From Undaria pinnatifida (taxonomy: Eukaryota; Sar; Phaeophyceae; Laminariales; Alariaceae): a stretch of 64,000 nucleotides of DNA. Position numbers and translations under genes: made by a program. The stretch covers positions 21,360,203 through 21,424,202 of the forward strand of contig JABAKD010000023.1 of assembly GCA_012845835.1 (NCBI GenBank), written 5' to 3'. Under the pieces are notes generated by a model. That model searched no databases. It worked only from the letters and a program-made list of their open reading frames with translations, and was not told the DNA's origin. This document shows, piece after piece, positions 2,138 through 60,155 of the stretch (position 1 is the first letter of the stretch; each line of letters starts with the position of its first letter).

Positions 2138-2406
2138 TGAGAAATTAAAGGTGGGGGACACAGAGTGCCCCCTGCAGGTCTGCCAATTGAGCAGGTCCTC
2201 GGAGAGTACTCACTTTCGTTCCTTCGTAGAGATGTAGCTTTATTCGTTTCCACCAGAGCCCGGGATAGCTTCTGAGATCGGAGGCGCGTGCCTCCGATCT
2301 AGTTCCTAACTTCCCCGAATATAATACGCCAACCTTATCATACGAAACCCATCCAAATGATCTTAAATTCGGATACCTGCAGGCCTTTCAAGGCCGTATC
2401 TTAACA
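2138..2406 (-). repeat. 3' LTR of Element 1
   Basis: Minus-strand LTR of about 269 bp. It contains a near-perfect palindrome at 2275-2300 and an AATAAA signal (TTTATT at about 2240 on the plus strand). It is homologous to 17279-17548, 33509-33775 and 61012-61280. Confidence 0.95.
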
Positions 2407-3268: not shown

Positions 3269-6200
3269 TCAACTGGCCACGGCCGCGCCTCGAGGTTCGT
3301 CTACGTTAAGTTGGATTCCCCGAGGAAACGCACTGGCGATGTGAACTTGCAAGCACCAAGAGCCTCGTACGGCTCCCGTTGAAGTCGTGTAGCGCGCCGG
3401 GGGAAGAGCAAGCTTAATCGGTCCCGGGTCGTCCAGAAAGCGGACCAGGTATACCTTGTCCTCGGTAGTGCTCGCGCTGATTTTTCCTAGCCACCATAAA
3501 CCATCGTCTCCCTTGTACCAAAAGTGGGTTCCCTTAGGAAGTACGGTGTCGTGGTAGCGACGGAGCCAATCGGTGCGGGGAACACAGGCGTAGCCCGGCG
3601 CTAGGAAACGTTCCCCGTTGTTGCGGGAGAGCTCACGCTGTGCCGCCCCGATCCGCATTCGGCGGTAAAGGCGGTTGGTTTGGCGGTGCTGGTCCGGGGT
3701 TCCGGCCCAATAACGCAAGATGTGGGGGCGGGAGAGGTGAAGGTCCATTTCCCGCTCCCAGGACGGTTCGGAGAGTCCCGCCCAATGCGTCTTGTATAGC
3801 ACCGCGATGACGCCACCTCGCCCCCGTACCGACTGATGACCAGTGATCTGCTCCACCTCCAGCCGTTGGAGGGGAGTCGAAACGTCGTCTTGAGTGACGT
3901 GGTACGGCGGGGACTTCTTGGAAAATTTGTTGAGCACATACTGTGTCAGCCCCGCGGGTAGGTATTTGGGCATGTCCCCGCTGTCGTGGGGGTTGGCACA
4001 GGGTTTGCAGCGCTCGATGGCCATACGCCGACGAGCGTCCGAACCAGGCAGGTCGGAAGGGAGATCCAAATAAAGGAGGTTGCTCCCGAGCGGCGAGCCG
4101 TCCGGGGTCTCGGCGGCGGAGCAGGGACCGACGGCCAGGACCTTGTATGGGCCCGTCCAGTTAAGCGCGAGTTTGGCCTTGAGTACCTTGGCGTCGGTAT
4201 TCGCCTTCACACCCTGGCGGATGGTAGAGGCAGAATTGTATACCCATGCCCAACCACCCAAAGTGAAGTTAGGTGCTGGACGCAGCGCGTCGGCGAGGGC
4301 GGAGTTTCTGCGGTTAACACGGGAAACGGTGAGGGCGTGGTGTGCGCGGACAATGTCGTTCGCGCGCTTTTGCCGGTCGGTGGCCAAATCGCAATGGGCC
4401 AGGTGGTCACGGGCCAGACTCTGGTGTCCCACGACACCTTTGCGGTCGAAAATCGTCAGGGGGAGCATTGGGAGTCTGCCCATGTGGACCTCGTTGGGCG
4501 CCAAACCCGTCGCCGCGCTGACAGAGTTGTTGTAAGCGAATTCGACGTGGGGCAAATGCAAGTCCCAGTCGTCTTGTCGCTCGTTGACGACCATAGCCAG
4601 CATTTGTGCCATAGTGTGATTTACCCGCTCAACGCCCCCGTTACAGTTGGGATGGTAGGAGCTTGTAGCAAGCTTGTGTACACCCAACAGCTGATATACA
4701 GCTTGTGAAAGCTTGGAGCAGGACTGCAGTCCGTTGTCCGAGAGTATGGTGCGCGGGCACCCCCACAAGGGGATGCATTGGTTCACCAGGATATTGGCTG
4801 TACCTTCCGCGGTGAACTCAGCGGCAGTGACGGGGAACATGTCGGCCCGACAACTGAAGCGATCGGTGAACAGCCGGATGTAGGTGTTGCCTCGTGGTGT
4901 GACCGGAAGGGGGCCGAAGTAGTCAACACTGACGGCGATACCTGGACCTTCCGGCAGAGGCATTGCGATGATGGGCCAGCGGACAGTCAGCCGTGGGGTT
5001 TTCCGCGCTTGGCACTTCAAGCAGTGGCGAAGCCACCACCGGGTACACACACTCATGCCAATCCACCAATAAAAACGCTCCAGCATGCGCAACGTGCGCG
5101 TGGTGCCAAGGTGGCAGGAGGCCGTCGAGTGGCAAGCTTGCATGATCCAAGGGCGCATGAGCAGGGGAACGTAGATGCGAACTGGCTCGTTGTTTAGCAA
5201 GCAAGCAGCTCGCCCCACAGAGTTCGGTTTGGCAGAGCTTGTTGGCGGGAGTGTCGGTTTACGGACGAGTAGGACAAAGTCGTCGTCGGTTGTATGTAGT
5301 CGACCCTTACCCGCCAGTTCCTGGATGTCTGAGAGAGAGGGACGCTTGGGCGAGGGGTAGCATGCCAAGAAGTCCGGTGGCAGGGGCGACGGCCGGCCGA
5401 TAGAGATGTAACGTATCGTGGCGTGGCACGTCGGCTCTGCGTGTTGTTCGCGCGTCCAATCGGCATGTGAATAGCGCGCGACGGAGTCCGCGAATCGCAA
5501 CTCAGCAGCGTCGCCGAGGGCATCCGACCTTGTAAGTGTAGCCGGCGTTTCACCAGGAGGAGGCGTAAGCCGTAGAAGCGGAGTTCCCATAGGCTCTGCG
5601 TGGTCGTGGTCGGACGGAAGTGGTACCGTGCGGGCCGGTGGGTCGGCAAGAGTAGGGGTCGCGGCGACTGGCGGAGCCGGCCGCGGCCGTCGGGCTCGCG
5701 GCGGAGTTGTAGCTCGTCTGGACGATAACTGGGGGACCCCGTCGGGCCCGAAGCCATAGTCGACAGTAGGGGGTGCCTTACCAGCTGCTGTTGCTGAACG
5801 CCGGCGCGTCCGAGTGGAGATGCGGTCCGAAAAGGGCGTCGTCGTCTGGGGCGCCGGGAATCCAGGCGAGGTTGGGACGGACGCGGTCGGGCCCATGGGC
5901 TCGACGGGGTTTGTCCCTTGTACCGAGCTCCGTGAAGGAGTCGGTTGGGCCACTGATGTCGTGGCAGCCGGGGCTTCGGCGGAGTCTTCGTTGGTCACGG
6001 TGGGTACAGCAAAAACCGAAGCGAAATTGTAGTCGGCTGTACGCGAGCCCCCGTCTCGGCCGGGCGAGCTATCGACGGTGGCCGTGGATGCAGAAACACG
6101 AGCGACGAATCTCCTGGAAGGAGTAGGAAGGTCGTTAAGCTTCATACGTGGCCCGTGTGTGCGAAAATCGCAGAAGTCGGCAAGAGTGAGAGGAAGCCCA

Positions 6201-7729
6201 CCCAAGGCATTACTTTCGGTGCGGGGCATTAGCCCACCCAAGCCGACACCCGGTATCGGAGAAGAAGGAGTGTACAGCCCGCAAGCCCGTATGAGGTATA
6301 TACCACCATCCTCAACAGGGGTAAGGCTCGTCGAACCATTGCGGTCGTGTTCCGTGGCAGGCTCCGGCAAGCGAGACAGGAAGTCAGCGTTGCCGTTTGC
6401 GCTTCCTTTTCGGTATTCGAGGGTGTAATCGAATGCGGTGAGGAACTCGAGCCACCTCTGGACTCGGCCGTTGTGATTCCCCACTTTGCCTATGTTTTCC
6501 AGAGCCTTGTGGTCTGAGAATATTCGGAACTTGGTGCCCCAAAGGAAGCCGCGGAGGCGCTTGAGAGCCCAGACGATGCTGCCAGCCTCCAAATCGAGAG
6601 GAGTCCAATGCCTTTCCGAGTCGAGCGTAGCTCGACTGATGTATGCGATGGCTTTTATGGAGCCGTCCGTATGCTCCTGTTCGAGAGCGGCTCCGAACCC
6701 GTCGATGCCGTCATCGCAGTACACGTGGAACGGGCGAGTGCCGTCGGCGACGGCGTCCCAATCAGGGAAAACGAGGACCGGCGGGGTCGTGAGCTCCGCC
6801 AAAATTTCTCTCACCAACTTTTCCATAGCCGGCGTGAAGGCAAACTTTACCCCCTTCCGAAGGAGTGCGTTAATAGGACGAAGTCTCTTCGATAAGTCGG
6901 GCAAAAATTTGCGGTAATAGTTGATACCACCCATGAGTGCGCGCACCTGCTTAACGTCAGTGGGCATCGGCATATTGGTCAATGCCGACACTTTTTCCGA
7001 ATTCGGGCGTAGGCCTGCTGGAGAAATGGAGTGGCGTAGAAAGTTCGCATCGGTAGCGCCCAAACGCGCCTTCGAGGGGGAAAGCTTGAGATTGTGCTTT
7101 CGAAGGCGTTCGAAGAGAGAGCGAATCGTCCGAACATGCGTTACCGGGTCGGAGTCGAACACGATGACATCGTCGAGGTAAGCTGCCACCTGTGTCAAAC
7201 CCTTGATCACCTCATTGATAACCTTGGCGAACCACCCAGGCGAGGCGCTGCTGCCCTGGGGCATAACGAGCCACTCATAAAGGCCCGTGGGTGTGCAGAA
7301 CGCTGTAAGGGGAATTGTGTCCTTTTGTGCCGTTATCTGGTGGAACGAGGAAACCAAGTCGAACAGGGGAAACACCCGACCTGAGCCCAAGGAGTCCAGG
7401 ACCTGGTCCACGCGCGGAATCGGCAGTTGGCTGAGCTTGCTAATTTGGTTGAGCTTCTTGTAGTTCACCGTGATCCTCACACCGCCAGATTTCTTCGGGA
7501 TGACCACCAGCGGGCTCGAGTACGGTGAGGTCGAGTGCTGAATCAGCCCAGCCGCGAGGTACTGGTCAAGGGTCGCGTCCACTTCTCTGGCCAGTATAGG
7601 GTTTATGCGATGGGGCCGTGAAGTGACCGGAGCGCTGCCCTCCGGAACCGAGATTTCAAAGGGCATTGGGGAGCATGACCCAATATCCGTCTTCGAGGTG
7701 GAGAACACGTCAGAAAAGTCGCAGAGCAC
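3269..7729 (-). CDS. pol: Pol: reverse transcriptase, RNase H, integrase, chromodomain, Tudor-like tail (Element 1)
   Basis: Open for 1486 residues. Counting from 7729: RT about 40-250 with YLDD at 184-187; RNase H about 330-450 with D339 in YCDD, E381 and D406 in FSDH, ending ADFLSR; a Pro/Ser/Thr-rich spacer about 460-800; integrase HHCC zinc site (H867, H873, C903, C906) and catalytic D936, D998, E1034 with exactly 35 residues between D998 and E1034; a GPY/F-type segment near 1190 (WTGPYKV); a chromodomain-like segment about 1289-1342 (YKTHWAGLSEPSWE); and a Tudor-like segment about 1400-1440 (FWYKGDDGLWWLGKI). The protein copies element RNA into cDNA and integrates it; the chromodomain probably directs integration to modified chromatin. 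The reading frame continues upstream into PR across one TGA at 7811-7813, which is CGA in Element 3. All catalytic residues I can see are intact. Confidence 0.93.
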   Translation of the reverse strand: MLCDFSDVFSTSKTDIGSCSPMPFEISVPEGSAPVTSRPHRINPILAREVDATLDQYLAAGLIQHSTSPYSSPLVVIPKKSGGVRITVNYKKLNQISKLSQLPIPRVDQVLDSLGSGRVFPLFDLVSSFHQITAQKDTIPLTAFCTPTGLYEWLVMPQGSSASPGWFAKVINEVIKGLTQVAAYLDDVIVFDSDPVTHVRTIRSLFERLRKHNLKLSPSKARLGATDANFLRHSISPAGLRPNSEKVSALTNMPMPTDVKQVRALMGGINYYRKFLPDLSKRLRPINALLRKGVKFAFTPAMEKLVREILAELTTPPVLVFPDWDAVADGTRPFHVYCDDGIDGFGAALEQEHTDGSIKAIAYISRATLDSERHWTPLDLEAGSIVWALKRLRGFLWGTKFRIFSDHKALENIGKVGNHNGRVQRWLEFLTAFDYTLEYRKGSANGNADFLSRLPEPATEHDRNGSTSLTPVEDGGIYLIRACGLYTPSSPIPGVGLGGLMPRTESNALGGLPLTLADFCDFRTHGPRMKLNDLPTPSRRFVARVSASTATVDSSPGRDGGSRTADYNFASVFAVPTVTNEDSAEAPAATTSVAQPTPSRSSVQGTNPVEPMGPTASVPTSPGFPAPQTTTPFSDRISTRTRRRSATAAGKAPPTVDYGFGPDGVPQLSSRRATTPPRARRPRPAPPVAATPTLADPPARTVPLPSDHDHAEPMGTPLLRLTPPPGETPATLTRSDALGDAAELRFADSVARYSHADWTREQHAEPTCHATIRYISIGRPSPLPPDFLACYPSPKRPSLSDIQELAGKGRLHTTDDDFVLLVRKPTLPPTSSAKPNSVGRAACLLNNEPVRIYVPLLMRPWIMQACHSTASCHLGTTRTLRMLERFYWWIGMSVCTRWWLRHCLKCQARKTPRLTVRWPIIAMPLPEGPGIAVSVDYFGPLPVTPRGNTYIRLFTDRFSCRADMFPVTAAEFTAEGTANILVNQCIPLWGCPRTILSDNGLQSCSKLSQAVYQLLGVHKLATSSYHPNCNGGVERVNHTMAQMLAMVVNERQDDWDLHLPHVEFAYNNSVSAATGLAPNEVHMGRLPMLPLTIFDRKGVVGHQSLARDHLAHCDLATDRQKRANDIVRAHHALTVSRVNRRNSALADALRPAPNFTLGGWAWVYNSASTIRQGVKANTDAKVLKAKLALNWTGPYKVLAVGPCSAAETPDGSPLGSNLLYLDLPSDLPGSDARRRMAIERCKPCANPHDSGDMPKYLPAGLTQYVLNKFSKKSPPYHVTQDDVSTPLQRLEVEQITGHQSVRGRGGVIAVLYKTHWAGLSEPSWEREMDLHLSRPHILRYWAGTPDQHRQTNRLYRRMRIGAAQRELSRNNGERFLAPGYACVPRTDWLRRYHDTVLPKGTHFWYKGDDGLWWLGKISASTTEDKVYLVRFLDDPGPIKLALPPARYTTSTGAVRGSWCLQVHIASAFPRGIQLNVDEPRGAAVAS

Positions 7730-9020
7730 ATCCCCCAGTTGCTCAATGGTCGGGGGGTCCCAACCAGGGTCGTGTAAGTCGAACGCAATCTCCCGCAGGT
7801 GCGGTGGGAGTCAGGCCCATACGCGTAGAAATGCAGAACGTTGGACCGGGTTCAAACGTTCCATAAGCGTCGGCGAGGGCGACGGTACGGCGGGAACTAT
7901 CCCCTCCGCGCCGGTCGGGCTCGCGACCGCAGAGACCTGGCTGTCCGAAGTCTGGCCAGGGTGGGGACCCGCAGCCTTGATAGGGTGTTGCAAGGCACCC
8001 AGCGGGATGCGCAAAAGTGGGGCGTCGGCGACTCCGATAAGGTCGCCTGGCTCGAGGTCTGCGACACCTATGACGGGAAGCACCTGTCGTCCTGAAGCAA
8101 CAAAGTGTTTCTGTCCCGAAAGAACATCCGGCTGCGGCAGTATGTCGACAAGATAGTGTCCTGTGAGCTCAGGAGAGCCGTTACTGCGCACCAAGTTGAC
8201 CTCGAGCAGTTGGGGTTCGTCCGACAAAGTGACGCCTGTAGAGCCATCATAGCGAAGGTGGAAAGCACCGTTCGATGCTGCGGGGTCGACGGCATAAGCC
8301 GCTACGCCTGCTGTGGCGTGGTGGGACAACGTCAGCTCGCCCAAAACCCGATTATCGAGAGGACGAGGGGGCAGGGCGCGGTACGAACGGGTGTTGAAGC
8401 GCATCCAACTGTCGCGGCCCAGCAAGACAGCGTGCTACATGACCGAAGGAGGGACCACGCATGCCCACACCGCGAGAGAGCATGTCGGTTCTTTTTCGAG
8501 GAAGAATTGAACGCTCAGACGGATGTGGGTCGCGGTCCGTAAAGGGGCGGATTCGCCAAAGCCACCCCAGGAGCTAGGGCTGCTAGGCCGCTCGCACGTC
8601 GATGAGGCGGCGCCTACCGATAGCATACGATCCAACACGTCACGACGGATGAAGGTTTGGGGGGAGCCAGTGTCAAGCAGCGCTGTACATATGTAGGGCG
8701 CAATAGCGTCCCCTCCGCTATGTATTGCAATATCGGTAGTGAAAGAATCGTCGTCCAGCGTCACGGTACCCCCGACGAGGCAGGGGCCATGTTCCGGCAG
8801 TGCGCGGTCTGAGGCACCGCGAAAAGCTACCGCCAAAACCTCCGGGCTTTGATCGGCGGGTGTACCTGAAAAATAGGCCGAAGGAGGGCCTTGGGCAGCG
8901 CCGACCGCGGTCCCCAAGCGCGACTGCTGAGCGGACGAAATTTCATGGATTCCAGCATTCCCGGTGGGCCTGCGGAATCGACTAGGGGAGGCCGGGTGTG
9001 GCGATCCGTCCTCGCAGTCG
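7730..9020 (-). pseudogene. Retropepsin (PR) region of Pol with two in-frame stops (Element 1)
   Basis: The aspartic protease motif LLDTGSPQTF lies at about 8650-8680. A retropepsin-like C-terminal LLGRDSW lies just after a TAG at 8435-8437, in the same frame. A TGA at 7811-7813 separates it from RT, also in frame; Element 3 has CGA there. Apart from these two stops the frame runs from 9020 to 3269. PR would process the Gag-Pol polyprotein. Its upstream boundary is the MITE at 9021-9264, which cuts it off from NADAR. The first 50 or so residues of the ORF that begins at 9181 are MITE sequence and not protein of the element. Confidence 0.85.
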
Positions 9021-9273
9021 ACTGATTCTACGATAGCCCCCCCCTCAAACCAGCGATGGTCTTTAACGAACGATTCATGGCTGCTCGACACAAGGACGGA
9101 TACAACTGAAAACGGGGTGTCCACATATTTTCTTGGGTGCAAAGGCCTATCGATCGATGACGTCGGGGTGTCGAGGGACACCGTATTTCAGGAGATACGA
9201 CCGGGAGCTGGTTTTGAAACCAGCGATTTCGTTAAAGAAAAGTTGGGGGGGCTACCGTGGAGGGTTGCAGTCG
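9012..9273. repeat. 9-bp target-site duplication flanking the MITE
   Basis: TCGCAGTCG at 9012-9020 and TTGCAGTCG at 9265-9273 match at 8 of 9 bases and bracket the MITE. Element 2, which lacks the MITE at this point (about 28810), reads through without interruption. Confidence 0.8.
9021..9264. mobile_element. 244-bp MITE inserted between NADAR and PR
   Basis: Ends are inverted repeats: one side ACGATAGCCCCCCC, the reverse complement of the other side ACGGTAGCCCCCCC, with a further inverted AAACCAGCGAT/CTTTAACGAA segment inside each end. A second copy is at 19066-19311. The 9-bp target duplications at both copies fit Mutator-like (MULE) transposition. It has no coding capacity and needs a transposase in trans. 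In Element 1 it adds 253 bp (with one duplication), which is not a multiple of three and breaks the polyprotein frame. Confidence 0.85.
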
Positions 9274-10046
9274 CGGATTGCTTCGCGAACGGCAGAGTGT
9301 GCCTCACCGAGCAAATTTTTTCCTCTCCACTTGTGTGGATCCTTGGCGTGGGGGTCGTCCGCCCGGAGACCTATACCCCACACAGTGTCTAGAGGACTGG
9401 CCTCTGCCAGAAATTTGTTGCCAGTTCTCAAAAGGTGATTTTTAATGGCTGGGTTCTGCGTAAATTTGGCATAGTTGCCAGATAACACGGCATTTTGCTT
9501 CTCCCTGTCCCAAACGGCGGCGTCAAAATTGCGCACACCTCGACCGACGCGCTTTTGTGTGCTGGGGTCAGACGATGACATGATGAGCTCCACTGCGCGA
9601 TGGTCTTTAAAAAGCCGAGCCTTTTCAGCCATCATAAACTGCTCCGCGCAAGAATATGAGACGTCGTCGACGACAAACGACGAAGGAGACCACTGCGAGA
9701 AAAAGGACGGCGGTTGCCAGAACAACACTACTTTGTCTGTAGAGTATTCGAGGGAAGGGTCAAAAGTTGACGGTGCCAACCCGTCGGAGGCCGTGTTAGG
9801 CATATGAGCTTGTAATGTCCCCGTCTGGGGACACCAGTCTCTGGCACTTTGGGCCTGCAGCGTCCCCGTCTGAGAACTCCCGGCCTCGGGAGCACGGCGC
9901 GAGCCCGAACCCACGGGTGGTCGCGTCGTGGCCTTGTCGCTCTTTGGCGTAAAATTGCAAGGAACTGCTCTCACTGCACCCGAAGGGACAGGGGGCTCGG
10001 AGCTGTTACTGCTTGACGAGAGGCGCGATTCCTTCCGTATCTTCAC
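9265..10046 (-). CDS. NADAR domain (YbiA-like) within the retrotransposon polyprotein (Element 1)
   Basis: Residues about 105-260 (9283-9734) form a complete NADAR domain. Motifs in order: FWQPPSFFSQWSPSSF, SCAEQFMMAEKA (conserved Glu), GRGVRNFDAAVWDREK, KFTQNPAIKNHLL, AEASPLDTVWGIGL, then DP, a conserved Trp, and GKNLLGEA. NADAR proteins act on ADP-ribose-type N-glycosidic bonds; some family members remove ADP-ribose from nucleobases and YbiA acts on riboflavin-pathway intermediates. The first 100 residues are a Ser/Pro-rich linker containing a twice-repeated TGTLQA motif. Upstream, one extra G relative to Element 2 (about 10028-10034) shifts the frame from the linker ORF. Downstream the MITE interrupts. 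Subtracting both, linker, NADAR, PR and RT share one frame. ATG at 10046 is therefore probably not a real start. A function in protecting cDNA or Gag from host ADP-ribosylation is inference. Confidence 0.88.
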
Positions 10047-10698
10047 GGGAATAGCGTCCAGCTGATCGGGCTGGAGGCCGTGGCGTCACCACTGGCCCGT
10101 TGCGCAGTGTCGGATCTATATCCTGTGCCACTGGGGCAGACGTAGCCTGATGCACGTGGGTTTGCGTGCTTAAAGACGGATCAGGGCCCGTAGACCCTGT
10201 GGGCGTCTTCGAGAGCGGGGCTCGGGCAAGTGGAAATAAATTCTTCGCCCGAGAGGGCTCCTTCCCGTTAGCCCTCTTGAAGGAGAGAGACGAGGTAGCT
10301 AAGCTTGTCGGCTCCTCCTTGATGGGAAAAAGGATAGAGCGCCCGCTACTATCGCGAGGAGACACCGACTCAAATCTTGGAAAAGATCTCGGTGCATATG
10401 GGTTGGCTTTCCCACACCTCAAGCCAACCGCCGCTGTACGGTCAGGAAGAGGTGGAGACGAACCCGCTCGCGTATGGGGGCGACGCGTCGTCGCCGCAGT
10501 CTTCTTGCTGCGCGACGCGTGCCTGAAGGGAGCGTGCAAGGTGCAGGCTCCTGAGTCATGGTTGAGGGGGGCAGCGTTAGGGGCGCGTGCCTCCGTTGTC
10601 GAGCTTGAGCCACGGCAGGGGTTAACGTCGTTGGAAGTACTGGTCCCCATTGCCGAACTCGGACCATGATCGAGGGGGGCGTCACTGTGGGCGCGCAC
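10006..10698 (-). CDS. Linker segment of Gag-Pol, Pro/Ser/Thr-rich (Element 1)
   Basis: A 230-residue disordered-looking segment rich in Ser, Pro, Thr and Arg. It is conserved with Element 2 (27420-27722), including KTPTGST and PVAQ motifs, which shows it was translated. No domain is recognised. Relative to Gag it lies in the -1 frame, overlapping the Gag-frame continuation between 10698 and 10419, so a -1 frameshift between Gag and Pol is possible. It overlaps the start of the NADAR ORF by 41 bp in another frame because of a one-base difference from Element 2. Confidence 0.65.
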   Translation of the reverse strand: MRAHSDAPLDHGPSSAMGTSTSNDVNPCRGSSSTTEARAPNAAPLNHDSGACTLHAPFRHASRSKKTAATTRRPHTRAGSSPPLPDRTAAVGLRCGKANPYAPRSFPRFESVSPRDSSGRSILFPIKEEPTSLATSSLSFKRANGKEPSRAKNLFPLARAPLSKTPTGSTGPDPSLSTQTHVHQATSAPVAQDIDPTLRNGPVVTPRPPARSAGRYSREDTEGIAPLVKQ

Positions 10699-10943
10699 CC
10701 CTTCGTAGAAAAGGTAACCTGGCTGGGGGGGGGCATACTGGGAGCCCTGGTCCCCACCGCCGGCACTGCGCCGTGGAAGTCATCAGGCGACGTAGGAGCC
10801 CTTGGGCTCTTGACAGAAGTAATTTGTGCCGCGCCACGTGTAAGGCGAACGACAGGCACACGAGCATCTTGTGAAATCAAAGGAAGTGTCCCCGACAGTG
10901 CCGTCGGCGTACGGGTCGGGTGTGCCGTACCGCCGTCGCCCTG

Positions 10944-12968
10944 TCAGTTGCCAGTGCGAAAGGTACCTGGTTGGCGCGCGTTGGGGTTTCCGCTCGGATT
11001 GTGGGTTGCCCCGAAACGTTCCCCCGGAGCAGACACGGAAGCCGAGGAGGCTGGCGAGGGCGGGACAGCACCTTGTTGGCCAGGCGTGTATGTGCTGTTG
11101 TTGTTACCGCTGTGGCTGTTTGTCCGTCCCTGGTCCCGTGGGTACCCTCGTGATTGGTTTGAACGATTTCGGCGATTTTTGTTGTACGTTTGCGAGCGAG
11201 AAGAGCGTCCGTCGCGGCGATAGCTAACCATACGTGCTTGCCACCGTCGGAAAAAGTCATCATCGCCAAGTTGACCAAGTTCAGGGTTTAGACAGCCGCT
11301 GGCGTTGATAAAGGGATGCTTACAGTTGCGTAAGGAATGAGTGTATTCGTGACAGTTGAGGCAATGACCCCTGTTTTCTCGGAGAGCCGCGGCGCGGGCA
11401 GAGGGCGTGAGGAGGCCGCTCCAGAGGGGAGGGTCGTCGGTCTTAAACGAGGCACTAACAGCGAAAACTTCTGCATAGTGTTGTTCTTCTAGGGGCCAGC
11501 AGTTGGACATTTTGTCGAGCCAGGGATCGGTGGAAGCAACAATCGGCATGACAATCGGATTATGGCTCGAACCCGTCTGCCAAGAAGGCGACTGGGACAG
11601 CACTCGGCCCTGGCCGCGCCCATGAACGGCGGGCCGGGGCCCCGACGGGGCGGATGACCGCGATCCCGTCGAAGAAACAGGTAGAGAAAAATGTTTTTCG
11701 CCGTTGACGGCAGGTGTCTTATTGTGCGCCAAGTCACTGAACGCTTTCCACATGGCATCAAACGAGGCGTATGGCCGTGGGTCCGTAGCCTTCGAGCCAG
11801 GGTATAACGTAGGCATGAGGGTCGGAAACTGCTCGTTGACCGCCATCCTAACCACCTCCAGTACGACATCCGTCCCCGGGGACAAAACACGCTCACTCCC
11901 CGTGACTGCCGATACTAGCGCACGGAACTCCCGACTGAAATCAGAAAAAGGCGTGCCGTTACACACTCCAAAAGTGTGCAACTTAGTGTAGCCTTCGCTC
12001 GTGTCGACCCGGTCAAAGTGCGTCACGAGCAGGCGTAGCAGGAGGGAGAAAGCCTCGGGCCCAGATGCTCCTCCGTCCAACGCTCTTGACACCTGTCCAA
12101 AAAAATCGTCGATCAAGGTGGTCATGCGAGCGGTCGTGGGCCTGTCAGGTGTTATGGCACGGTTGAATGCCAGGCGGAGGGGGTGGATCCAACCGGGAAC
12201 CCACATGGGGGCACGTACACCCTCTTGGCAACGGTCGTCACAGCGCATGAGTATGTCAGTCATGGCAGACCGAACCGAACGTGTGAGTTGCTGTAGGCCG
12301 TCAGACTTGTTCAAAGAGACGGGGAACGGTAGCACAGACATGCGTGATACGTCCTTGTGGGAGAGCTTAACATAGGCGCGCCTAACCGAGTCATCGAGCG
12401 TGGATTTAGCTAGAGCCGCGGCGGTAGCAAGTTCGGCGGTACGCTCGCGAGCCAAATCCGAAGAAACAGCCTTGGTGTGGTCACCCGACACAGTTAGTTT
12501 GCTCAGCCGGTCGGCGGACGAGGCAATATCCACCAGGGAAGGAGTTACTTGCCTCCTGCCAGCTACCACGGTCACCTCGCCGTGGTCCGTGTTCGAGCTC
12601 GAAGACGAGCGGGAGGACGTTGACGACCCGTCCCACGCTGAGGGCCCTCGTGTGCTGTTTCGCCGTCCTCCGGTGCCTCCTCCCGAGCTGCGACCGCCGC
12701 CCCGGTTGGTTCGGGCCTGGTTGCTCCCTTGGCGGCGCTGTGGGCCACCACCAGTACCCGACGTTCCTCCCGCGCTTCCACCACCGTTGCCACCACCGCG
12801 ACGGTTGTGGTGGCCACCACTCCCACCGTTTTCCCCCTTTCCCCCACTTTGGCCGCCACCACCCCCGGAGTTGCCACCTCCACGGTTGCGGTCCCCCCGA
12901 TCACGGCTGCCACCGCGCCGCTGTTTGGTGGAGCGCCTTTCTCCAGCGCTTCCTTTGGAGTCGGCCAC
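10944..12968 (-). CDS. gag: Gag-like protein, RGG-rich with a CCHC zinc knuckle (Element 1)
   Basis: About 670 residues. The N-terminal 130 are Gly/Arg/Ser-rich (RGG-type, likely RNA-binding and disordered). The middle is a capsid-like helical region, not assignable by eye. A zinc knuckle CX2CX4HX4C (CLNCHEYTHSLRNC) lies near residues 536-549, followed by an Asn/Arg/Ser-rich tail. It packages element RNA in virus-like particles. The codon at 12968 is GTG, with an in-frame TGA just upstream, so this is not a genuine start: translation probably enters from the ORF at 13228, which overlaps in another frame. The terminator is TGA followed by CAG; the same frame then stays open to 10419, so read-through, or decay of a sense codon, is possible. 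Confidence 0.85.
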   Translation of the reverse strand: MADSKGSAGERRSTKQRRGGSRDRGDRNRGGGNSGGGGGQSGGKGENGGSGGHHNRRGGGNGGGSAGGTSGTGGGPQRRQGSNQARTNRGGGRSSGGGTGGRRNSTRGPSAWDGSSTSSRSSSSSNTDHGEVTVVAGRRQVTPSLVDIASSADRLSKLTVSGDHTKAVSSDLARERTAELATAAALAKSTLDDSVRRAYVKLSHKDVSRMSVLPFPVSLNKSDGLQQLTRSVRSAMTDILMRCDDRCQEGVRAPMWVPGWIHPLRLAFNRAITPDRPTTARMTTLIDDFFGQVSRALDGGASGPEAFSLLLRLLVTHFDRVDTSEGYTKLHTFGVCNGTPFSDFSREFRALVSAVTGSERVLSPGTDVVLEVVRMAVNEQFPTLMPTLYPGSKATDPRPYASFDAMWKAFSDLAHNKTPAVNGEKHFSLPVSSTGSRSSAPSGPRPAVHGRGQGRVLSQSPSWQTGSSHNPIVMPIVASTDPWLDKMSNCWPLEEQHYAEVFAVSASFKTDDPPLWSGLLTPSARAAALRENRGHCLNCHEYTHSLRNCKHPFINASGCLNPELGQLGDDDFFRRWQARMVSYRRDGRSSRSQTYNKNRRNRSNQSRGYPRDQGRTNSHSGNNNSTYTPGQQGAVPPSPASSASVSAPGERFGATHNPSGNPNARQPGTFRTGN

Positions 12969-17278: not shown

Positions 17279-17548
17279 TGTGAAATTAAAGGGTGGAGGA
17301 CACAGAGTGCCCCCTGCAGGTCTGCCAATTGATCAGGTCCTCGGAGAGTACTCACTTTCGTTCCTTCGTAGAGATGTAGCTTTATTCGTTTCCACCAGAG
17401 CCCGGGATAGCTTCTGAGATCGGAGGCGCGTGCCTCCGATCTAATTCCTAACTTCCCCGAATATAATACGCCAACCTTATCATACGAAACCCATCCAAAT
17501 GATCTTAAATTCGGATACCTACAGGCCTTTCGAGGCCGTATCTTAACA
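17279..17548 (-). repeat. 5' LTR of Element 1
   Basis: 270 bp on the minus strand, from TGTTAAGATACGG to TTTAATTTCACA. It carries a TATA-like stretch, a near-palindrome at 17417-17442 and AATAAA (plus strand TTTATT near 17381). Confidence 0.95.
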
Positions 17549-18290: not shown

Positions 18291-19065
18291 TTTATACTCC
18301 GGAGTATAAAAATTGAAAAACGTCAGCTGTGAGTACGACCGATTGAATGGTTGAAACCCAAAGCAAGAAAGTAAAGAAAAGCTGGACCAATTTTAAATGT
18401 TCAGAAGATGAAAAACGAGTTCGAACGAATCAAATATAAAGGAGATAGTAAAAAATGAGTGAATGAAGAAACTGAAAAACGAAAAAAATACATTAATTGT
18501 CATAATAACTGGCCCACAGCTTCAGCTTGCTCCTGTTGCCTTGTGTTGTGTGCCCTTGGGCACATTATTATGAAAAAGCTCGCATGGACTTCTATTAAAA
18601 TGCAAGTTCAACTCCCTCGCATGGACGTCCATTAACATGAATGTTAAACTCCCGAAAAACCAAAGTTATTGCAAGTTAAACTCCCAAAAACAAAAAAATT
18701 GGAAAAAAATAGTAAAAAAATAAAAAGGGTAAAAAAATGTTCAGAACATGAAAAACGAGTTCGAACGAATCAAATTTGAAGGAGATAGTAGAATATGAAC
18801 GAAGAAAAAACTGAAAAAAAAACGAAAAATGCAATAATTAATTGACGAAATAAATGGAAGAACCAACAAAGCGTGGAAGAAAGCAAAGAAAAGCTGGAGC
18901 GGTGAAATAATGTTGCCAAGAGGTGCTTGTGCAGAGCTAATTGCCCTGCGCTAGAATCTGATGCTTGTTGATGTCACGTTCTGAACGGCAGTACGTGTGA
19001 CGAGAACACGGCACGTACATAATAAATGGTACCTGGTACCTGTATCATACCTGGTACTACTACTG
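18291..19065. other. AT-rich stretch without a gene; internal repeat
   Basis: A segment containing GTTCAGAAGATGAAAAACG at about 18400 recurs at about 18738, with flanking TTCGAACGAATCAAATWTRAAGGAGATAGTA-like sequence, as a direct repeat about 340 bp apart. No coding domain is seen. Confidence 0.5.
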
Positions 19066-19311
19066 ACTGATTCTACGATAGCCCCCCCCAAAACCAGCGA
19101 TTTTGTTTAACCAACGTTTCATGGCTGCTCGACACAAGGAAGGATACTATCGAAAACATACTATCCACACATTTTCTTGTGTGCAAAGGTCTTTCGATCG
19201 ATGACGTCGGGGGGTCGAGGGACACCGTATTTCAGGAGAAACAATCGAGAGCTGGTTTTGAAACCAGCGATTTCGTTAAAGAAAAGTTGGGGGGGCTACC
19301 GTAGAACGACT
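19066..19311. mobile_element. Second copy of the MITE
   Basis: About 246 bp, closely similar to 9021-9264. Terminal inverted repeats: ACTGATTCTACGATAGCC at the left, and AGTCGTTCTACGGTAGCC as the reverse complement of the right end. It is flanked by CTACTACTG (19057-19065) and CTACTGCTG (19312-19320), matching at 8 of 9 bases. Confidence 0.85.
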
Positions 19312-27419: not shown

Positions 27420-28812
27420 GTGTTTTCTCGCGGTAACAGCGGGCGCTCCGTCCTTTTTTTTTCCATCAAGGAGGAGTCGGCAAGATTAGCTACCTCGTCT
27501 CCCTTCTCCAAGAGGCATAACGAAAAAGAGCCTCCTCGGGTAAGAACATTATTACCACTTCCCCGAGCCCCGCTCCAGAAGACGCCCACAGGGTCTACGG
27601 ACCCTGCTTTGTCTTTTAACACGCTAACCCACGTGTTTCAGGCTGCGTCTGCCCCAGTGGCACAGGAAGAAGATTCGACAATGCGCGACGGGCCAGTGGT
27701 GAATCCACGGCCTCCAGCCTGATCAGCTGGACGCTATTCCCGTGAAATGACGGAAGAATCGCGCCTCTCGTCAAGCAGAAACAACTCAGAGCCCCTGCCC
27801 CTTCGGGCGTAGTTAGAGTAGTTTTCTTGCGATTACATGATAAAGATCGAAGAGGCCACGACGCGAGAAACCGTGGGTTCGGACTCGCGTCGTGCTCCCG
27901 AGGCCTGGTGTTCCTGAGGGGGACACTACAGGCCCAAAGAGCCGAGGACTGGTGTTCCCAGAGGGGGACATTGCAGACCCAAATGCCCAACGGGGCTACC
28001 GACGGGTTGGCACCGTCGGTGTTAGACTCTTTTTCGGGTGCAGCGAGGGCGGCTTCTTACGAGGCCTGGTGCTCCCGCCAGGGGACACTACAGGCCCAAA
28101 GAGCCGAAGACAGATGCAGACCCACAAATGTCCAACGAGGCTACCGACGGGTTGGCACCGTCAGTTTTTGCCATTTTTCGGGCGCAGTTAGAGCGCATTC
28201 TCGCGTTTTTCCGCCAACGAGCGAAGAAAGACCCGAGGCGAGATACCACTGGTTCGGATTCACGTCGTGCTTCCGAGGCCCGGAGTTCCTGGACGGGGAT
28301 ATTGCAGGCCCAAATTTCAACACGGCTTTTGACCCTTCTCTCGGATACTCCACAGCCAAAGTGGTGTTATTCTGGCAGCCCCCATCCTATTTTCCACCGT
28401 GGTCCCCTTCGTCGTTTGCCGTGGACGACGTACCATACTCTTGCGCAGAGCAGTACAGGATGGCCGAAAAGACCAAGTTTTTGGAAGACCATCGAACATT
28501 GGGGTCGTCGCCTCGTCCAAGCACACGCAAACGCATCGGTCGAGGCGTGCGCAACTTTGACTCCGCTGTTGGGGACAGGGAGAAGCAAAACGCCGTGTCA
28601 CCTGGCACCTACGCCAAATTCACGCAGAATCCAGCCATAAAGAATCACCTTTTGAGCTCTGACAACAAGATTCTGGCTGAATCCAGGCCTCTGAACCCAG
28701 TGTGGGGCATTGGTCTCCGGGCGGATGGTCCCAGGGCCAACACCCCATGCCAGGGGAGAGGAAAAACTTGCTCGGTGAGGCACTTTCTGCCGTTCGCGAA
28801 GCTATTCGCGAC
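27420..28812 (+). pseudogene. Linker plus decayed NADAR domain (Element 2)
   Basis: The linker (27420-27722) ends at a TGA where Element 1 has CGA. Between about 27795 and 28320 a segment of roughly 140-240 bp carrying a GTLQAQ-type motif is repeated three times; Element 1 has it once. NADAR follows (about 28344-28812). It keeps SCAEQ, GRGVRNFDSAV, KFTQNPAIKNHLL and VWGIGLRAD, but the Trp after FDSAV is Gly, the EASP motif is altered, and a one-base shift just before the KNLLGEA motif (about 28762) breaks it. KNLLGEA and VREAIRD survive in another frame at 28765-28815. The site where Element 1 carries the MITE is uninterrupted here. Confidence 0.85.
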
Positions 28813-54734: not shown

Positions 54735-55113
54735 ACGATACCGTTGAAACTCCTCCAAACACGAGGTCGCCGATTACTGTACGGTTTCCCCCATATAGTG
54801 CCTTGGCCTGGCTGTCTCTGGCCCTTTCCTGCTACCGCTAGTTTGCGAGAGACTTGTCCTGCGTCCTCTACGTTATTGCGAGTGTATACTTGTAAGCACC
54901 AGACTTCCAACGTCATTCGCGCTGGAATACTCGCTCGGGCACGTCGCCTCCCGCCGCGAGCACGGACGCACCTCCTATACGGAGAGAGTGTAGTGCAAAC
55001 TCGTCGGGGTTGCGTCCCGACTGCGCCACAATCTCTCTCAACGCTCGCATCGCTTGGCCATATCCCCATACTCTCCCTCCGTTGTCACTACGATACGAGG
55101 CGAGGGGGGCCAC
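54735..55113 (-). pseudogene. Tyrosine recombinase (integrase), C-terminal remnant
   Basis: On the minus strand the ORF reads FALHSLRIGGASVLAAGGD (the His-x-x-Arg box at about 54970-54993), then ERVFQRE, TGA at 54913-54915, RWKSGAYK, and after a one-base shift VYTRNNVEDA with the likely nucleophile Tyr (about 54884). This is the catalytic end of a phage-integrase-type recombinase as carried by Crypton or DIRS-like elements of protists and algae. The upstream part is missing because gypsy Element 3 sequence starts at about 55109. Downstream, past about 54740, similarity fades. It is inactive. Confidence 0.75.
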
Positions 55114-55714
55114 AGCAGGCGTAGAGGCTTATGCCGTCGACCCCGCACCATCGAACGGTGCTTTCCACCTTCGCTATGATGACTTTACAGGTGTCACTTT
55201 GTCGGACGAGCCCCAACTGCTCGTGGTCAACTTGGTGCGCAGTGACGGCTCTCCTGCGCTCACAGGACACTATCTTGTCGACATACTGCCGCAGCCGGAT
55301 ATTATTTCGGAACAGAAACACTTTGTTGCTTCAGGGCGACAGGTGCTTCCCGTCATAGGTGTCGCGGACCTCGAGCCAGGCGACCTTATCGGGGTCGCCG
55401 ACGCCCCACTTTTGCGCATCCCGCTGGCTGCCTTGCAACACCCCATGAAGGCTGCGGGTCCCCACCCTGGCAAGACTTCGGACAGCCAGGTCTCTGCGGT
55501 CGCGAGCCCGACGGACGCGGAGGGGATAGTTCCCGACGTACCGCCGCCCTCGCCGACGCTTATGGAACGTTTGAACCCAGTCCAACGTTCTGCATTTCTA
55601 CGCGTCTGGGCCCGACTCCCACCGCACCTGCGGGAGATTGCGTTCGACTCACACGACCCTGGTTGGGACCTCCCGACCAGAGCAACTGGGGGGTGTGCTC
55701 TGCGACTTTTCTGA
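55109..55714 (+). pseudogene. C-terminal PR and connector of Pol (Element 3)
   Basis: Matches the Element 1 segment between LLGRDSW and RT (AYAVDP through FLRVWARLPPHLREIAFD). The DTGS active site is absent because of the truncation. A 2-bp deletion at about 55680 shifts the frame relative to RT. Element 3 has Arg (CGA) where Element 1 has the TGA at 7811-7813. Confidence 0.8.
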
Positions 55715-55721
55715 CGTGTTC

Positions 55722-58700
55722 TCCACCTCGAAGACGGATTTTGGGTCATGGTCCCTAATACCCTTTGAAATCTCGGTTCCGGAGGGCAGCGCTCCGGTCA
55801 CTTCACGGCCCCATCGCATAAACCCTATACTGGCCAGAGAAGTGGACGCGACCCTTAACCAGTACCTCGCGGCTGGGCTGATTCAGCACTCGACCTCACC
55901 GTACTCGAGCCCGCTGGTGGTCATCCCGAAGAAATCTGAAGGTGTGAGGATCACGGTGAACTACAAGAAACTCAACCAAATTACCAAGCTCAGCCAACTG
56001 CCGATTCCGCGCGAGGACCAGGTCCTGGACTCCTTGGGCTCAGGTCGGGTGTTTTCCCTGTTCGACTTGGTTTCCTCGTTCCACCAGATAACGGCACACA
56101 AGGACACAGTTCCCCTTACAGCGTTCTGCACACCCACGGGCCTTTTTGAGTGGCTCGTTATGCCCAAGGGCAGCAGCGCCTCGCCTGGGTGGTTCGTCAA
56201 GGTTATCAATGAGGTGATCAAGGGTTTGACACAGGTGGCAGCTTACCTCGACGATGTCATCGTGTTCGACTCCGACCCGGTAACGCATGTTAGGACGATT
56301 CGCTCTCTCTTCGAACGCCTTCGAAAACACAATCTCAAGCTTTCCCCCTCGAAGGCGCGTTTGGGCGCTACCGATGCGAACTTTCTAGGCCACTCCATTT
56401 CTCCAGCAGGCCTACGCCCAAATTCGGAAAAAGTGTCGGCATTGACCTGTATGCCGATGCCCACAGACGTTAAGCAGGTGCGCGCACTCATGGGTGGTAT
56501 CAACTATTACCGCAAGTTTTTGCCCGACTTATCGAAGAGACTTCGTCCTATTAACGCACTCCTTCGGAAGGGGGCCAAGTTTGCCTTCACGCCTGCTATG
56601 GAGGAGTTGGTGAGAGAAATCTTGGCGGAGCTCACGACCCCGCCGGTCCTCGTTTTTCCTGATTGGGACGCCGTCGCCGACGGCACACGCCCGTTCCACG
56701 TGTACTGCGATGCCTGCATCGACGGGCTCGGAGCCGCTCTCGAACAGGAGCAGACGGACGGCTCCATAAAACCCATCGCATACATCAGTCGAGCTACGCT
56801 CGACTCGGAAAGGCATTGGACTCCTCTCGATTTGGAGGCTGGCAGCATCGTCTGGGCTCTCAAGCGCCTCCGCGGCTACCTTTGGGGCACCAATTTCCGA
56901 ATATTCTCAGACCACAAGGCTCTGGAAAACATAGGCAAAGTGGGGAATCACAACGGCCGAGTCCAGAGATGGCTCGAGTTCCTCACCGCATTCGATTACA
57001 CCCTCGAATACCGAAACGGAAGCGCAAACGGCAACGCTGACTTCCTGTCTCGCTTGCCGGAGCCTGCCACGGAACACGACCGAAATGGTTCGACGAGCCT
57101 TACCCCTGTTGAGTATGGTGGTATTTTCCTCATACGGGCTTGCGGGCTGTACACTCCTTCTTCTCCGATACCGGGTGTCGGCTTGGGTGGGCTAATGCCC
57201 CGCACCGAAAATAATGCTTTGGGTGGGCTTCCTCTCACTCTTGCCGACTTTTGCGATTTTCGCACACACGGGCCACGTATGAGGCTTGACGACCTTCCTA
57301 CTCCTTCCAGGAGATTCGTCGCTCGTGTTTCTGAATCGACCGCCACCGTCGATAGCTCGCCTGGCCGAGGCGGGGGCTCGCGTACAGCCGACTACGATTT
57401 CGCTTCGGTTTTTGCTGTACCCGCCGTGACCAACGAGGACTCCGCCGAAGCCCCGGCTGCCACGACATCAGTGGCCCAACCGACTCCTTCCCGGAGCTCG
57501 ATACAAGGGACAAACCCCGTCGAGCCCATGGGCCCGACCGCGTCCGTCCCAACCTCGCCTGGATCTCCGGCGCCCCAGACGATGACGCCTTTTTCGGACC
57601 GCATCTCCACTCAGACGCGCCGGCGTTCAACAACAGCAGCTGGTAAGGCACCCCCTGCTGTCGACTATGGCTTCGGGCCTGGCAGGGTCCCCCAGCCATC
57701 ATCCAGACGAGTTACAACTCCGCCGCGAGCCCGACGGCCGCGGCCGGCTCCGTCAGTCGCCGCGACCCCTACTCTTGCCGACCCGCCGGCCCGCACGGTA
57801 CCACTTCCGTCCAACCACGATCACGCAGAGCCTATGGGAACTCCGCTCCTACGGCTTAGGCCTCCTCCTGGTGAAACGCCGACCGCATATACAAGGCCGG
57901 ATGCCCTCGACGACGCTGCTGAGTCGCGGTTCGCGGATTCCGTCGCGCGTTATTCACATGCCGATTGGAAGCGCAAACAACACGCAGAGCCGACGTGCCA
58001 CGCCACGATACGTTACATCTCTATCGGCCGGCCGTCGGCCCTGCCACCCGACTTCTTAGCATGCTACCCCTCGCCCAAGCGTCCCTCCCTCTCGGACATC
58101 CAGGAACTGGCGGGTAAGGGTCGACTACATACAACCGACGACGACATCGTCCTATTCGTCCGTAACCCGACACTCCCGCCAACAAGATCTGACAAACCGA
58201 AATCGGTGGGGCGAGCTGCTTGCTTGCTAAACGATGAGCCAGTTCGCATCTACGTTCCGCTGCTCATGCGCCCTTGGATCATGCAAGATTGCCACTTGAC
58301 GGCCTCCTGCCACCTTGGCACCACGCACACGTTGCGCATGCTGGAGCGTTTTTATTGGTGGATTGGCATGAGTGTGTGCACCCGGTGGTGGCTTCGCCAC
58401 TGCTTGAAGTGCCAAGCGCGGAAAACCCCACGGCTGACTGTCCGCTGGCCCATCATCACAATGCCTCTGCCGGAAGGTCCAGGTATCGCCGTCAGTGTTG
58501 ACTACTTCGGCCCCCTTCCAGCCACACCACAAGGCAACATCTACATCCTGCTGTTCACCGATTGCTTCAGTCGTCGGGCCGACATGTTCCCCGTCACTGC
58601 CGCTGAGTTCACCGCGGAAGGTACAGCCAATATCCTGGTGAACCAATACATCCCCTTGTGGGGGTGCCCGCGCACCATACTCTCGGAAAATGGACTGCAG

Positions 58701-60155
58701 GTCTGCTCCAAGCTGTCACAAGCTGTATATCAGCTGTTGGGTGTACACAAGCTTGCTACAAGCTCCTACCATCCCAACTGTAACGGGGGCGTTGAGCGGG
58801 TAAATCACACTATGGCACAAACGCTGGCTATGGTCGTCAACGAGCGACAAGACGACTGGGACTTGCATCTGCCCCACGTCGAATTCGCTTACAACAACTC
58901 TGTCAGCGCGGCGACGGGTTCGGCGCCCAACGAGGTCCACATGGGCAGACTCCCACGGCTCCCCCTGACGATTTTCGACCGCAAAGGTGTCGTGGGACAC
59001 CAGCGTCTGGCCCGTGACCACCTGGTCTATTGTGATTTGGCCACCGACCGGCAAAAGCGCGCAAACGACATTGTCCGCTCACACCACGCCCTCACCGTTT
59101 CCCGAGTTAACCGCAGAAACTCCGCCCTCGCCGACGCGCTGCGTCCAGCACCTAACTTCACTGTGGGTGGTTGGGCATGGGTATACAATTCTGCCTCTAC
59201 CATCCGCCAGGGTGTGAAGGCGAATACCGACGCCAAGGTACTCAAGGCCAAACTCGCGCTGAACTGGACGGGCCCATACAAGGTCCTGGCCGTCGGTCCC
59301 TGCTCCGCCGCCGAGACCCCGGACGGCTCGCCGCTCGGGAGCAACCTCCTTTATTTGGATATCCCTTCGGACCTGCCTGGTTCGGACGCTCGTCGGCGTG
59401 TGACCATCGAGCGCTGCAAACCCTGTGCCAACCCCCACGACAGCGGGGACATGCCCAAATACCTACCGGCGGGGCTGACACAGTATGTGCTCAGCAAATT
59501 TTCCAAGAAGTCCCCGCCGTACCACGTCACTCAAGACGACGTTTCGACTCCCCTCCAACGGCTGGAGGTGGAGCAGATCACTGGTCATCAGTCGGTACGG
59601 GGGCGAGGTGGCGTCATCGCGGTGCTATACAAGACGCATTGGGCGGGACTCTCCGAACCGTCCTGAGAGCGGGAAATGGACCTCCACCTCTCCCGCTCCC
59701 ACATCTTGCGTTATTGGGCCGGAACCCCGGACCAGCACCGCCAAACCAACCGCCTTTACCGCCGAATGCGGATCGGGACGGCACAGCGTGAGCTCTCCCG
59801 CAACAACGGGGAACGTTTCCTAGCGCCGGGCTACGCCTGTGTTTCCCGCACCGATTGGCTCCGTCGCTACCACGACACAGTACTCCCTAAGGGAGCCCAC
59901 TTTTGGTACAAGGGAGACGATGGTTTATGGTGGCTAGGAAAAATCAGCGCGAGCACTACCGAGGACAAGGTATACCTGGTTCGCTTTCTGGACGACCCGG
60001 GACCGATTAAACTCCCTTTTCCCCCGGCGCGCTACACGACTTCAACGGGAGCCGTACGAGGCTCTTGGTGCTTGCAAGTTCACATCGCCAGTGCGTTTCC
60101 TCGGGGAATCCAACGTAACGTAGACGAAGCTCGAGGCGCGGCCGTGGCCAGTTGA
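55722..60155 (+). pseudogene. pol: Pol: RT, RNase H, integrase, chromodomain, Tudor-like tail (Element 3)
   Basis: RT with YLDD, RNase H with YCDA and FSDH, and the integrase HHCC site are all present. The first integrase Asp and the Glu are intact, but the second catalytic motif is SENG, as in Element 2. One TGA at 59664-59666 replaces a Trp in the chromodomain (EPSWE in Element 1); the frame continues unbroken to 60155 with the Tudor-like FWYKGDDGLWWLGKI. RT and RNase H look functional, so it could supply RT in trans if expressed, but it lacks an upstream LTR promoter. Confidence 0.9.

What the first reader, a model, noticed from the sequence alone, without database searches (positions are those of the whole stretch)
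9265..10046. A NADAR domain is built into the polyprotein of a gypsy retrotransposon, directly before the protease
Seen: all main NADAR motifs (CAEQ, GRGVRNFDAAVW, KFTQNP, EASPLDTVWGIGL, GKNLLGEA) in one ORF between the Gag-side linker and PR. Subtracting the 244-bp MITE plus one 9-bp duplication, NADAR is in the same frame as PR-RT; without the one extra G near 10030 the linker also joins this frame. Established: NADAR/YbiA-family proteins act on ADP-ribose-type N-glycosidic bonds, some reversing ADP-ribosylation of nucleobases. Inference: the element carries an ADP-ribosylation-reversing activity that could protect its RNA, cDNA or Gag from a host ADP-ribosyltransferase defence. I know of no described LTR element with this architecture, but I could not search.
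Basis: partly seen in the sequence, partly recalled or inferred. Interest (0 to 1): 0.95.

Follow-up and report, generated by a model that had tools for sequence, protein, structure and literature searches.

The report
ADP-ribose-removing enzyme inside algal retrotransposon
A jumping gene, most likely of a brown alga, carries in the same long protein as its copying enzymes a domain related to enzymes that strip ADP-ribose from DNA and RNA; this combination was first reported in 2025, and here its key residues look preserved in copies with their copying enzyme and partly lost in copies without it.

Summary
Window 9252-10046 (minus strand) encodes a YbiA-type NADAR domain (Pfam E 8.2e-50) in a Ty3/gypsy element, between a Gag-side linker and the protease. 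The window copy is broken by a MITE and a linker frameshift. In 29 close copies of the same 511-Mb genome, NADAR and protease share one open frame in 29, the linker too in 27. The architecture is not new: PMC12477816 (2025) reports NADAR at the N-terminus of Pol in one Ectocarpus Gypsy lineage. Added here: purifying selection (dN/dS 0.13 at dS 1.6); catalytic K50, R79, W89, E125, D130, W133 kept in 20 of 20 long lineage proteins but decaying in RT-deleted copies; NADAR and RT distances agree (Mantel r 0.91); one gain fits the RT tree; Gag and NADAR-Pol share a frame across a UGA (24 of 24 copies with Gag in that frame). Most likely it is a particle-borne Pol enzyme that removes ADP-ribose from guanines of element RNA or cDNA. 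Substrate and host defence are untested; no DarT match was found in the host.

The parts
17279..17548 (-). 5' LTR of element A
   Evidence: 97.4% identical to 2138-2406; TG...CA ends and a 4-bp TTTT flank on both sides read by eye (weak, low complexity)
2138..2406 (-). 3' LTR of element A
   Evidence: LTR-end matches also at copies B and C (33313-33771, 60813-61276)
10944..12968 (-). Gag-like ORF, 674 aa, CCHC zinc knuckle at about 11322-11363
   Evidence: ORF; CLNCHEYTHSLRNC; no Pfam match
10944..10946 (-). UGA stop between Gag and Pol; probable leaky stop
   Evidence: window; in the 24 of 29 copies whose Gag end is in the NADAR frame, UGA and the same following 15 bases in 24, and Pol open from there to the protease in 23
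10047..10943 (-). Gag-Pol linker, frame-shifted in this copy, in the NADAR frame in 28 of 29 other copies
9252..10046 (-). NADAR ORF, 264 aa (last few residues come from the MITE)
9273..9722 (-). NADAR domain; residues at E43, K50, K75, R79, W89, E125, D130, W133 (8bau numbering) all present
   Evidence: Pfam stretch 109-258; residue mapping
9021..9266 (.). MITE insertion plus short target duplication, separates NADAR from protease in this copy
   Evidence: absent from the 5 copies aligned; second MITE copy 19065-19305
8435..9181 (-). Protease part of Pol, LLDTGS at about 8663-8680
   Evidence: no Pfam match
7811..8425 (-). Conserved Pol stretch between protease and RT, no Pfam match
3269..7729 (-). 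RT, RNase H and integrase ORF, 1486 aa
   Evidence: PF00078, PF17917, PF17919, PF17921; PF00665 below its cut-off; YLDD
28322..28768 (+). NADAR of a second, RT-deleted element (copy B), 69% identical
55109..60152 (+). Third element (copy C): Pol from before RT to integrase; no NADAR found and no DNA match to element A before 55109

Best explanation
The NADAR domain is a further enzyme of this gypsy lineage's Pol, next to protease, RT, RNase H and integrase. Shown here: it is in frame with Pol, conserved, with its pocket residues kept. Inferred: it is made only when ribosomes read through the UGA at the end of Gag, so it enters particles at Pol-like, low amounts; it is freed or held by the protease; and it removes ADP-ribose from guanine bases of the element's RNA or cDNA, so that reverse transcription is not blocked by adducts set by host (or microbial) ADP-ribosyltransferases. 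The confidence given is for this whole chain; for 'a domain with an intact hydrolase pocket, selected as part of Pol' alone it is about 0.9.
For: One frame: NADAR and protease open together in 29 of 29 copies, linker too in 27; 16 of 150 scored NADAR copies (of 1,830 candidates) lie in open frames of at least 2,000 aa, nine of exactly 2,473; a second family has five copies at 2,371 aa. Order NADAR-protease-RT in all 20 proteins where all three were found, among the 75 of 120 printed. Selection: NADAR dN/dS 0.13 at dS 1.63 for window A against L052; in the same pair RT 0.09, protease 0.20, conserved Pol stretch 0.18. Pocket: K50, K75, R79, W89, E125, D130, W133 in 20 of 20 long lineage proteins, E43 in 19 of 20 (residue roles from PMC11543638). 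Contrast: in 11 RT-deleted copies W89 is lost in 11, E125 in 4, D130 in 6, and within-group dN/dS has median 0.84 (10 copies). RT and NADAR distances correlate, r 0.914, 0 of 9,999 permutations, n 16. UGA and the same following 15 bases in 24 of 24 copies with Gag in frame. NADARs reverse guanine ADP-ribosylation in DNA and RNA.
Against: No assay, no structure (the prediction machine was busy at every attempt), no expression or particle data. No DarT match in the host, and the PARP evidence is one exon of 33.6 bits. The sequence after the UGA does not fold clearly better than shuffles (z -1.26 and -0.73), so readthrough rests on frame and conservation alone, and copies of one young family share bases by descent; in 3 of 29 copies Gag is in another frame and in 2 no Gag match was found. 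Two ADP-ribose contacts of the oomycete structure are changed: D86 is variable, R93 is K, R or C. YbiA is also described as an N-glycosidase of riboflavin intermediates (PMC9303266 passages). Several of the 20 proteins and of the 16 Mantel rows are near-copies.
Confidence: 0.4

Rival explanations
1. NADAR acts on small molecules or RNA intermediates (free ADP-ribose derivatives, riboflavin-type or RNA-repair intermediates) rather than on modified bases, i.e. RNA processing in a broad sense, as proposed in PMC12477816 and discussed for viruses in PMC9503650.
For: YbiA N-glycosidase on riboflavin intermediates; RNA-processing hypothesis in print; the host has a Tpt1/KptA-like gene.
Against: NADARs were inactive on 5' and 3' phosphate-end ADP-ribose; a small-molecule enzyme need not sit in Pol (inference).
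Confidence: 0.22
2. NADAR removes ADP-ribose from proteins, such as Gag, integrase or chromatin at the insertion site, much as viral macrodomains do.
For: The virus survey notes NADAR inside RNA-virus polyproteins, largely exclusive of macrodomains; a PARP-like exon exists in the host.
Against: The activities seen in the passages read on NADARs concern guanine bases; protein activity was not seen in them.
Confidence: 0.15
3. NADAR is a non-catalytic RNA- or ADP-ribose-binding part that helps package RNA.
For: The NADAR protein SNA-3 works with an RNA-protein complex in nematodes.
Against: Catalytic residues are kept in the long lineage proteins and several are lost in RT-deleted copies; in SNA-3, too, mutation of homologous residues impairs function.
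Confidence: 0.1
4. NADAR is a host gene fragment or a separate gene that happens to lie between Gag and Pol.
For: In the window copy NADAR forms its own ORF.
Against: In one open frame with protease in 29 of 29 copies, in the same order in 20 proteins, and RT and NADAR distances agree.
Confidence: 0.02

Closest known systems
NADAR-bearing Gypsy lineage of Ectocarpus, e.g. Gypsy-12_Ec32 (PMC12477816; section 5 part 1 and passages read)
   Same: [quoted passage not shown] Ectocarpus proteins with RT and NADAR (P0130, P0142) fall in the same RT clade as the window.
   Different: Another genome (511 Mb against 200.2 Mb); families with frames of 2,473 and 2,371 aa; a UGA between Gag and Pol; an RT-deleted derivative. 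The sequence of Gypsy-12_Ec32 itself was not seen, nor the paper's supplements, so readthrough or selection may be treated there.
NADAR in ORF1 of Tx1 LINEs of Crassostrea gigas (PMC12477816)
   Same: NADAR in a retroelement.
   Different: LINE, ORF1, called divergent there; not compared here.
NADAR in polyproteins of nidoviruses, hepe-like and picorna-like viruses (PMC9503650 passages)
   Same: NADAR embedded in a polyprotein with the polymerase.
   Different: RNA viruses with an RNA-dependent RNA polymerase; not compared by sequence here.
Myxobacterial YbiA, antitoxin of YarT (PMC11125620 passages), and Nannocystis NADARs
   Same: Nannocystis NADARs are among the most similar bacterial proteins, 53 to 59% identical; the one mapped (P0092) has the same catalytic set.
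   Different: Stand-alone; linkage to YarT in the Nannocystis loci was not examined.

Membership tests
NADAR superfamily, YbiA family | Significant match to PF08719 over the whole domain | tested here: met
   E 8.2e-50, profile 2-163 of 163
NADAR superfamily, YbiA family | Glutamate (not D or H) at the E125 position | tested here: met
   E in window A and in 20 of 20 long lineage proteins; criterion from PMC11543638 and PMC11125620
NADAR superfamily, YbiA family | Guanine-ADP-ribose hydrolase activity | not testable with these tools
   needs an assay
NADAR superfamily, YbiA family | YbiA fold | not tested
   Structure prediction was busy at all 16 attempts; sequence match to solved NADARs 8bau and 2b3w only
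Ty3/gypsy LTR retrotransposon | Two LTRs, Gag with zinc knuckle, and order protease-RT-RNase H-integrase | tested here: met
   that this order marks Ty3/gypsy against copia is recalled
Ty3/gypsy LTR retrotransposon | RT nearest to named Ty3/gypsy RTs | tested here: inconclusive
   the 120 RT relatives listed (of 403) carry RT or RNase H Pfam domains, many with integrase, but few have names
NADAR-Gypsy lineage of brown algae | RT in one clade with Ectocarpus proteins that carry NADAR, NADAR before protease | tested here: met
   56-row clade, SH-aLRT 96; order. That those Ectocarpus proteins are the published lineage is inferred
DarT-NADAR toxin-antitoxin pair | ADP-ribosyltransferase gene beside NADAR | tested here: inconclusive
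   no ART in Pfam for the six element ORFs scanned and no DarT match in the host genome; PF01129 did not complete

The most novel reading that the evidence does not exclude
Brown algae use ADP-ribosylation of nucleic acid guanines as a defence against mobile elements, and one gypsy lineage captured an algal or bacterial NADAR once, long ago, as a counter-defence packed in its particles; RT-less derivatives that are mobilised in trans no longer need their own copy and lose its active site.
Probability: 0.3. Interest if true: 0.88.

Novelty: new member of a known kind. Interest (0 to 1): 0.45.

Why it matters
NADARs of eukaryotes have, by the papers seen here, no agreed role. A retroelement that keeps the catalytic residues across deep branches, and loses several of them where its own RT is gone, is a natural experiment: what the domain does should help the element. 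If the substrate is guanine-ADP-ribose, then ADP-ribosylation of retroelement nucleic acid should occur in these algae, which would point to an unknown host enzyme. It also parallels polymerase-linked NADAR and macrodomains of RNA viruses.

Tried and rejected
Separate-gene reading: rejected on continuous frames. Direct bacterial transfer as sole origin: not settled. In the tree of 86 NADARs 29 element NADARs, two stand-alone NADARs (P0085 of Ectocarpus fasciculatus, P0080 of an unnamed EukProt source) and P0074 (unnamed, 210 aa) form one supported group (95/97) apart from the bacterial and viral rows. This fits capture of a host gene, or the reverse, but the tree is unrooted, its bootstrap had not settled, four bacterial rows (three of them Nannocystis) sit on a very long branch, and the best match to P0085 among 150 scored in the host (of 1,658 candidates) was 56%; one such match, fetched as L141, proved to be another element copy. 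NADAR kept for a cis-role in RT-deleted copies: rejected, near-neutral there, with the caveat that those fetched were picked for having no stop inside NADAR. Structured readthrough signal: not found. DarT in host: none.

Rows dropped: NADAR domains with under 130 profile columns or more than 3 X were left out (203 kept), 86 of these used in the tree; one search printed 75 of 120 proteins; the RT tree used 72 rows, 28 of them too short upstream of RT to tell whether NADAR was there. Three proteins of the close RT group with at least 600 aa before RT lack NADAR: P0141 and P0171 sit inside the NADAR clade, P0159 outside it. The first count of frames went by frame alone; one search added the check for stops and is the one cited.

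Full report
What is there. Window 9252-10046, minus strand, encodes a 264-aa ORF. Its C-terminal part is a NADAR domain: PF08719, E 8.2e-50, residues 109-258; TIGR02464, E 6.1e-43; in the PDB, NADAR chain 8bau at E 2.3e-13 and E. coli YbiA 2b3w at 6.2e-4. Chance is excluded. The ORF lies in a Ty3/gypsy element: LTRs 2138-2406 and 17279-17548, 97.4% identical, a Gag-like ORF with a CCHC knuckle, an LLDTGS protease, and RT, RNase H and integrase.

The window copy is a damaged one. A MITE of about 246 bases with its short target duplication sits just after NADAR and supplies its stop codon; it is absent from five other copies compared, and a second MITE copy lies at 19065-19305. The linker upstream is out of frame. 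The window holds two more copies: B, with NADAR at 28322-28768, and C, whose 5' part with NADAR is not there.

Other copies settle the architecture. The window lies in a genome of 511,146,479 bases in 68 contigs. That size is near the 511,280,173 bases of the Undaria pinnatifida scaffolds (PMC7058681, passages), but the published scaffold number is 114, and I do not claim the species; the named relatives with NADAR and RT are Ectocarpus, so a brown alga is likely. A search with NADAR gave 1,830 candidates, 150 of which were scored; 16 of the 150 lie in open frames of at least 2,000 aa, nine of these of 2,473 aa. In the 29 closest other copies, NADAR and protease share one open frame in 29; the linker is in that frame in 28 and without a stop in 27. 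A second family, about 48% identical in NADAR and 76% in RT, has five copies at 2,371 aa. In the protein collection, NADAR, protease and RT were all found in 20 of the 75 proteins printed (of 120), each time in that order. So intact frames exist, and NADAR belongs to Pol.

Gag and Pol. In 24 of 29 copies the Gag end is in the NADAR frame; in 3 it is in another frame and in 2 there was no Gag match in the stretch held. In 24 of the 24 the Gag ends in UGA followed by the same 15 bases, and from there to the protease the frame is open in 23. The window has the same UGA at 10944-10946, and its Pol also ends in UGA, so UGA is not generally recoded. Readthrough, as recalled for murine leukaemia virus, is the simplest reading. 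The RNA after it does not fold clearly better than shuffles (z -1.26 and -0.73). If right, NADAR is made at Pol levels and packed with RT; that is inference. The 2,371-aa family was not examined for this.

Selection. By Nei-Gojobori counting, window A against the diverged copy L052 gives NADAR dN/dS 0.13 at dS 1.63; the same pair gives RT 0.09, protease 0.20 and the stretch between them 0.18. Between the two families dS is saturated in most pairs. Less diverged older copies, which include decay since insertion, give NADAR values of 0.18 to 0.65 against window A (L038-L042, L044-L046, L057). Against a group of RT-deleted copies (copy B and ten others, 11 in all; NADAR kept, the stretch from protease to about RT residue 360 missing) window A gives 0.21 to 0.32 for 10 of them and 0.35 for L043. 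Within that group, 10 copies compared, the median is 0.84. The 29 young copies are too alike to judge (0.22 to 0.76 on under 15 changes each).

Active site. Residue roles are from the ADP-ribose-bound oomycete NADAR and E. coli C7 mutants (PMC11543638, section 12 read). In 20 of 20 long proteins of the lineage K50, K75, R79, W89, E125, D130 and W133 are kept, E43 in 19; 16 of these 20 have RT in their Pfam list, the other four (P0246-P0248, P0251) do not, and several are near-copies. Window A has all eight. Y84 is F, D86 varies, R93 is R or C (K in the window). In 11 RT-deleted copies W89 is lost in 11, E125 in 4, D130 in 6. In 14 other own-genome copies each of the eight is kept in 12 to 14 (RT was not found in the fetched stretch of two of these, L046 and L057). 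The older copies were picked for having no stop inside NADAR, so decay is if anything understated. Thus the pocket is kept where the element has its own RT and partly lost where it does not.

History. Of 120 listed RT relatives (of 403 found), 29 carry NADAR, all among the 64 with at least 47% RT identity, none of the 56 others. Of 12 close ones with at least 700 aa before RT, 10 have it. RT and NADAR distances correlate at r 0.914, 0 of 9,999 permutations, n 16; some rows are near-copies. In the RT tree NADAR is spread over both halves of a 56-row clade (SH-aLRT 96), and P0159, which has room but no NADAR, branches outside it with P0147, where it cannot be told; branches there are long, and 28 rows could not be scored. 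One gain at the base of that clade fits. In the NADAR tree element NADARs group with stand-alone NADARs, P0085 of Ectocarpus fasciculatus and P0080, apart from bacteria; among bacteria, myxobacterial ones are most similar by identity (Nannocystis 53 to 59%). This qualifies the suggestion in PMC12477816 of transfer from bacteria: capture from, or gift to, an algal cellular gene is as likely. Direction is open.

Mechanism. NADARs remove ADP-ribose from guanine in DNA (PMC11543638, PMC11125620; passages and one section) and RNA, and not from phosphate ends (PMC11833690, passages). An enzyme of this kind in Pol would meet the element's RNA and cDNA in the particle. The host has a PARP-like exon (33.6 bits) and a Tpt1/KptA-like gene seen as three exon matches, but no DarT match; the ART family PF01129 did not complete. 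Tpt1-type phosphate-end marks would not be a substrate by the published data. So the activity is likely, the substrate plausible, the host defence unproven.

Known or new. In the listings of three paper searches (NADAR with retrotransposon, 20 of 104 listed; with brown alga, 10 of 80; NADAR domain with reverse transcriptase, 6 of 6) I saw no other report of it. Added here, as far as those searches and the parts read go: the selection and active-site contrast, the UGA, the RT-deleted derivative and the relative without NADAR.

A lead. P0254, 1,432 aa from an unnamed contig, has NADAR at its N-terminus (E 2.7e-39) and further on a YTDD motif in what looks by eye like an RT, with no other Pfam match. 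It may be a NADAR in a further kind of retroelement.

Noticed in passing
window 27420-33771; loci L043, L047-L051, L053-L056: RT-deleted derivative of the same family: NADAR kept but decaying, protease-to-RT stretch missing at about the same point, integrase up to 96% identical to copy A although NADAR is mostly about 70 to 74%, which suggests recombination with or mobilisation by A.
   Followed up: partly
protein P0254: NADAR in a 1,432-aa protein with an RT-like YTDD motif and no other Pfam match; possible further retroelement class with NADAR.
   Followed up: partly
proteins P0085 and P0080: Stand-alone NADARs (Ectocarpus fasciculatus and an unnamed EukProt source) that group with the retroelement NADARs; no close ortholog among the scored matches in the window's genome.
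   Followed up: partly
window 14300-15227: Tandem array of an 84-bp unit, about 11 units by span, between the 5' LTR and Gag of element A.
   Followed up: no
window 39398-40318: 306-aa ORF with a sub-threshold SWIM zinc-finger match (17.2 bits, cut-off 19.6), outside the elements.
   Followed up: no
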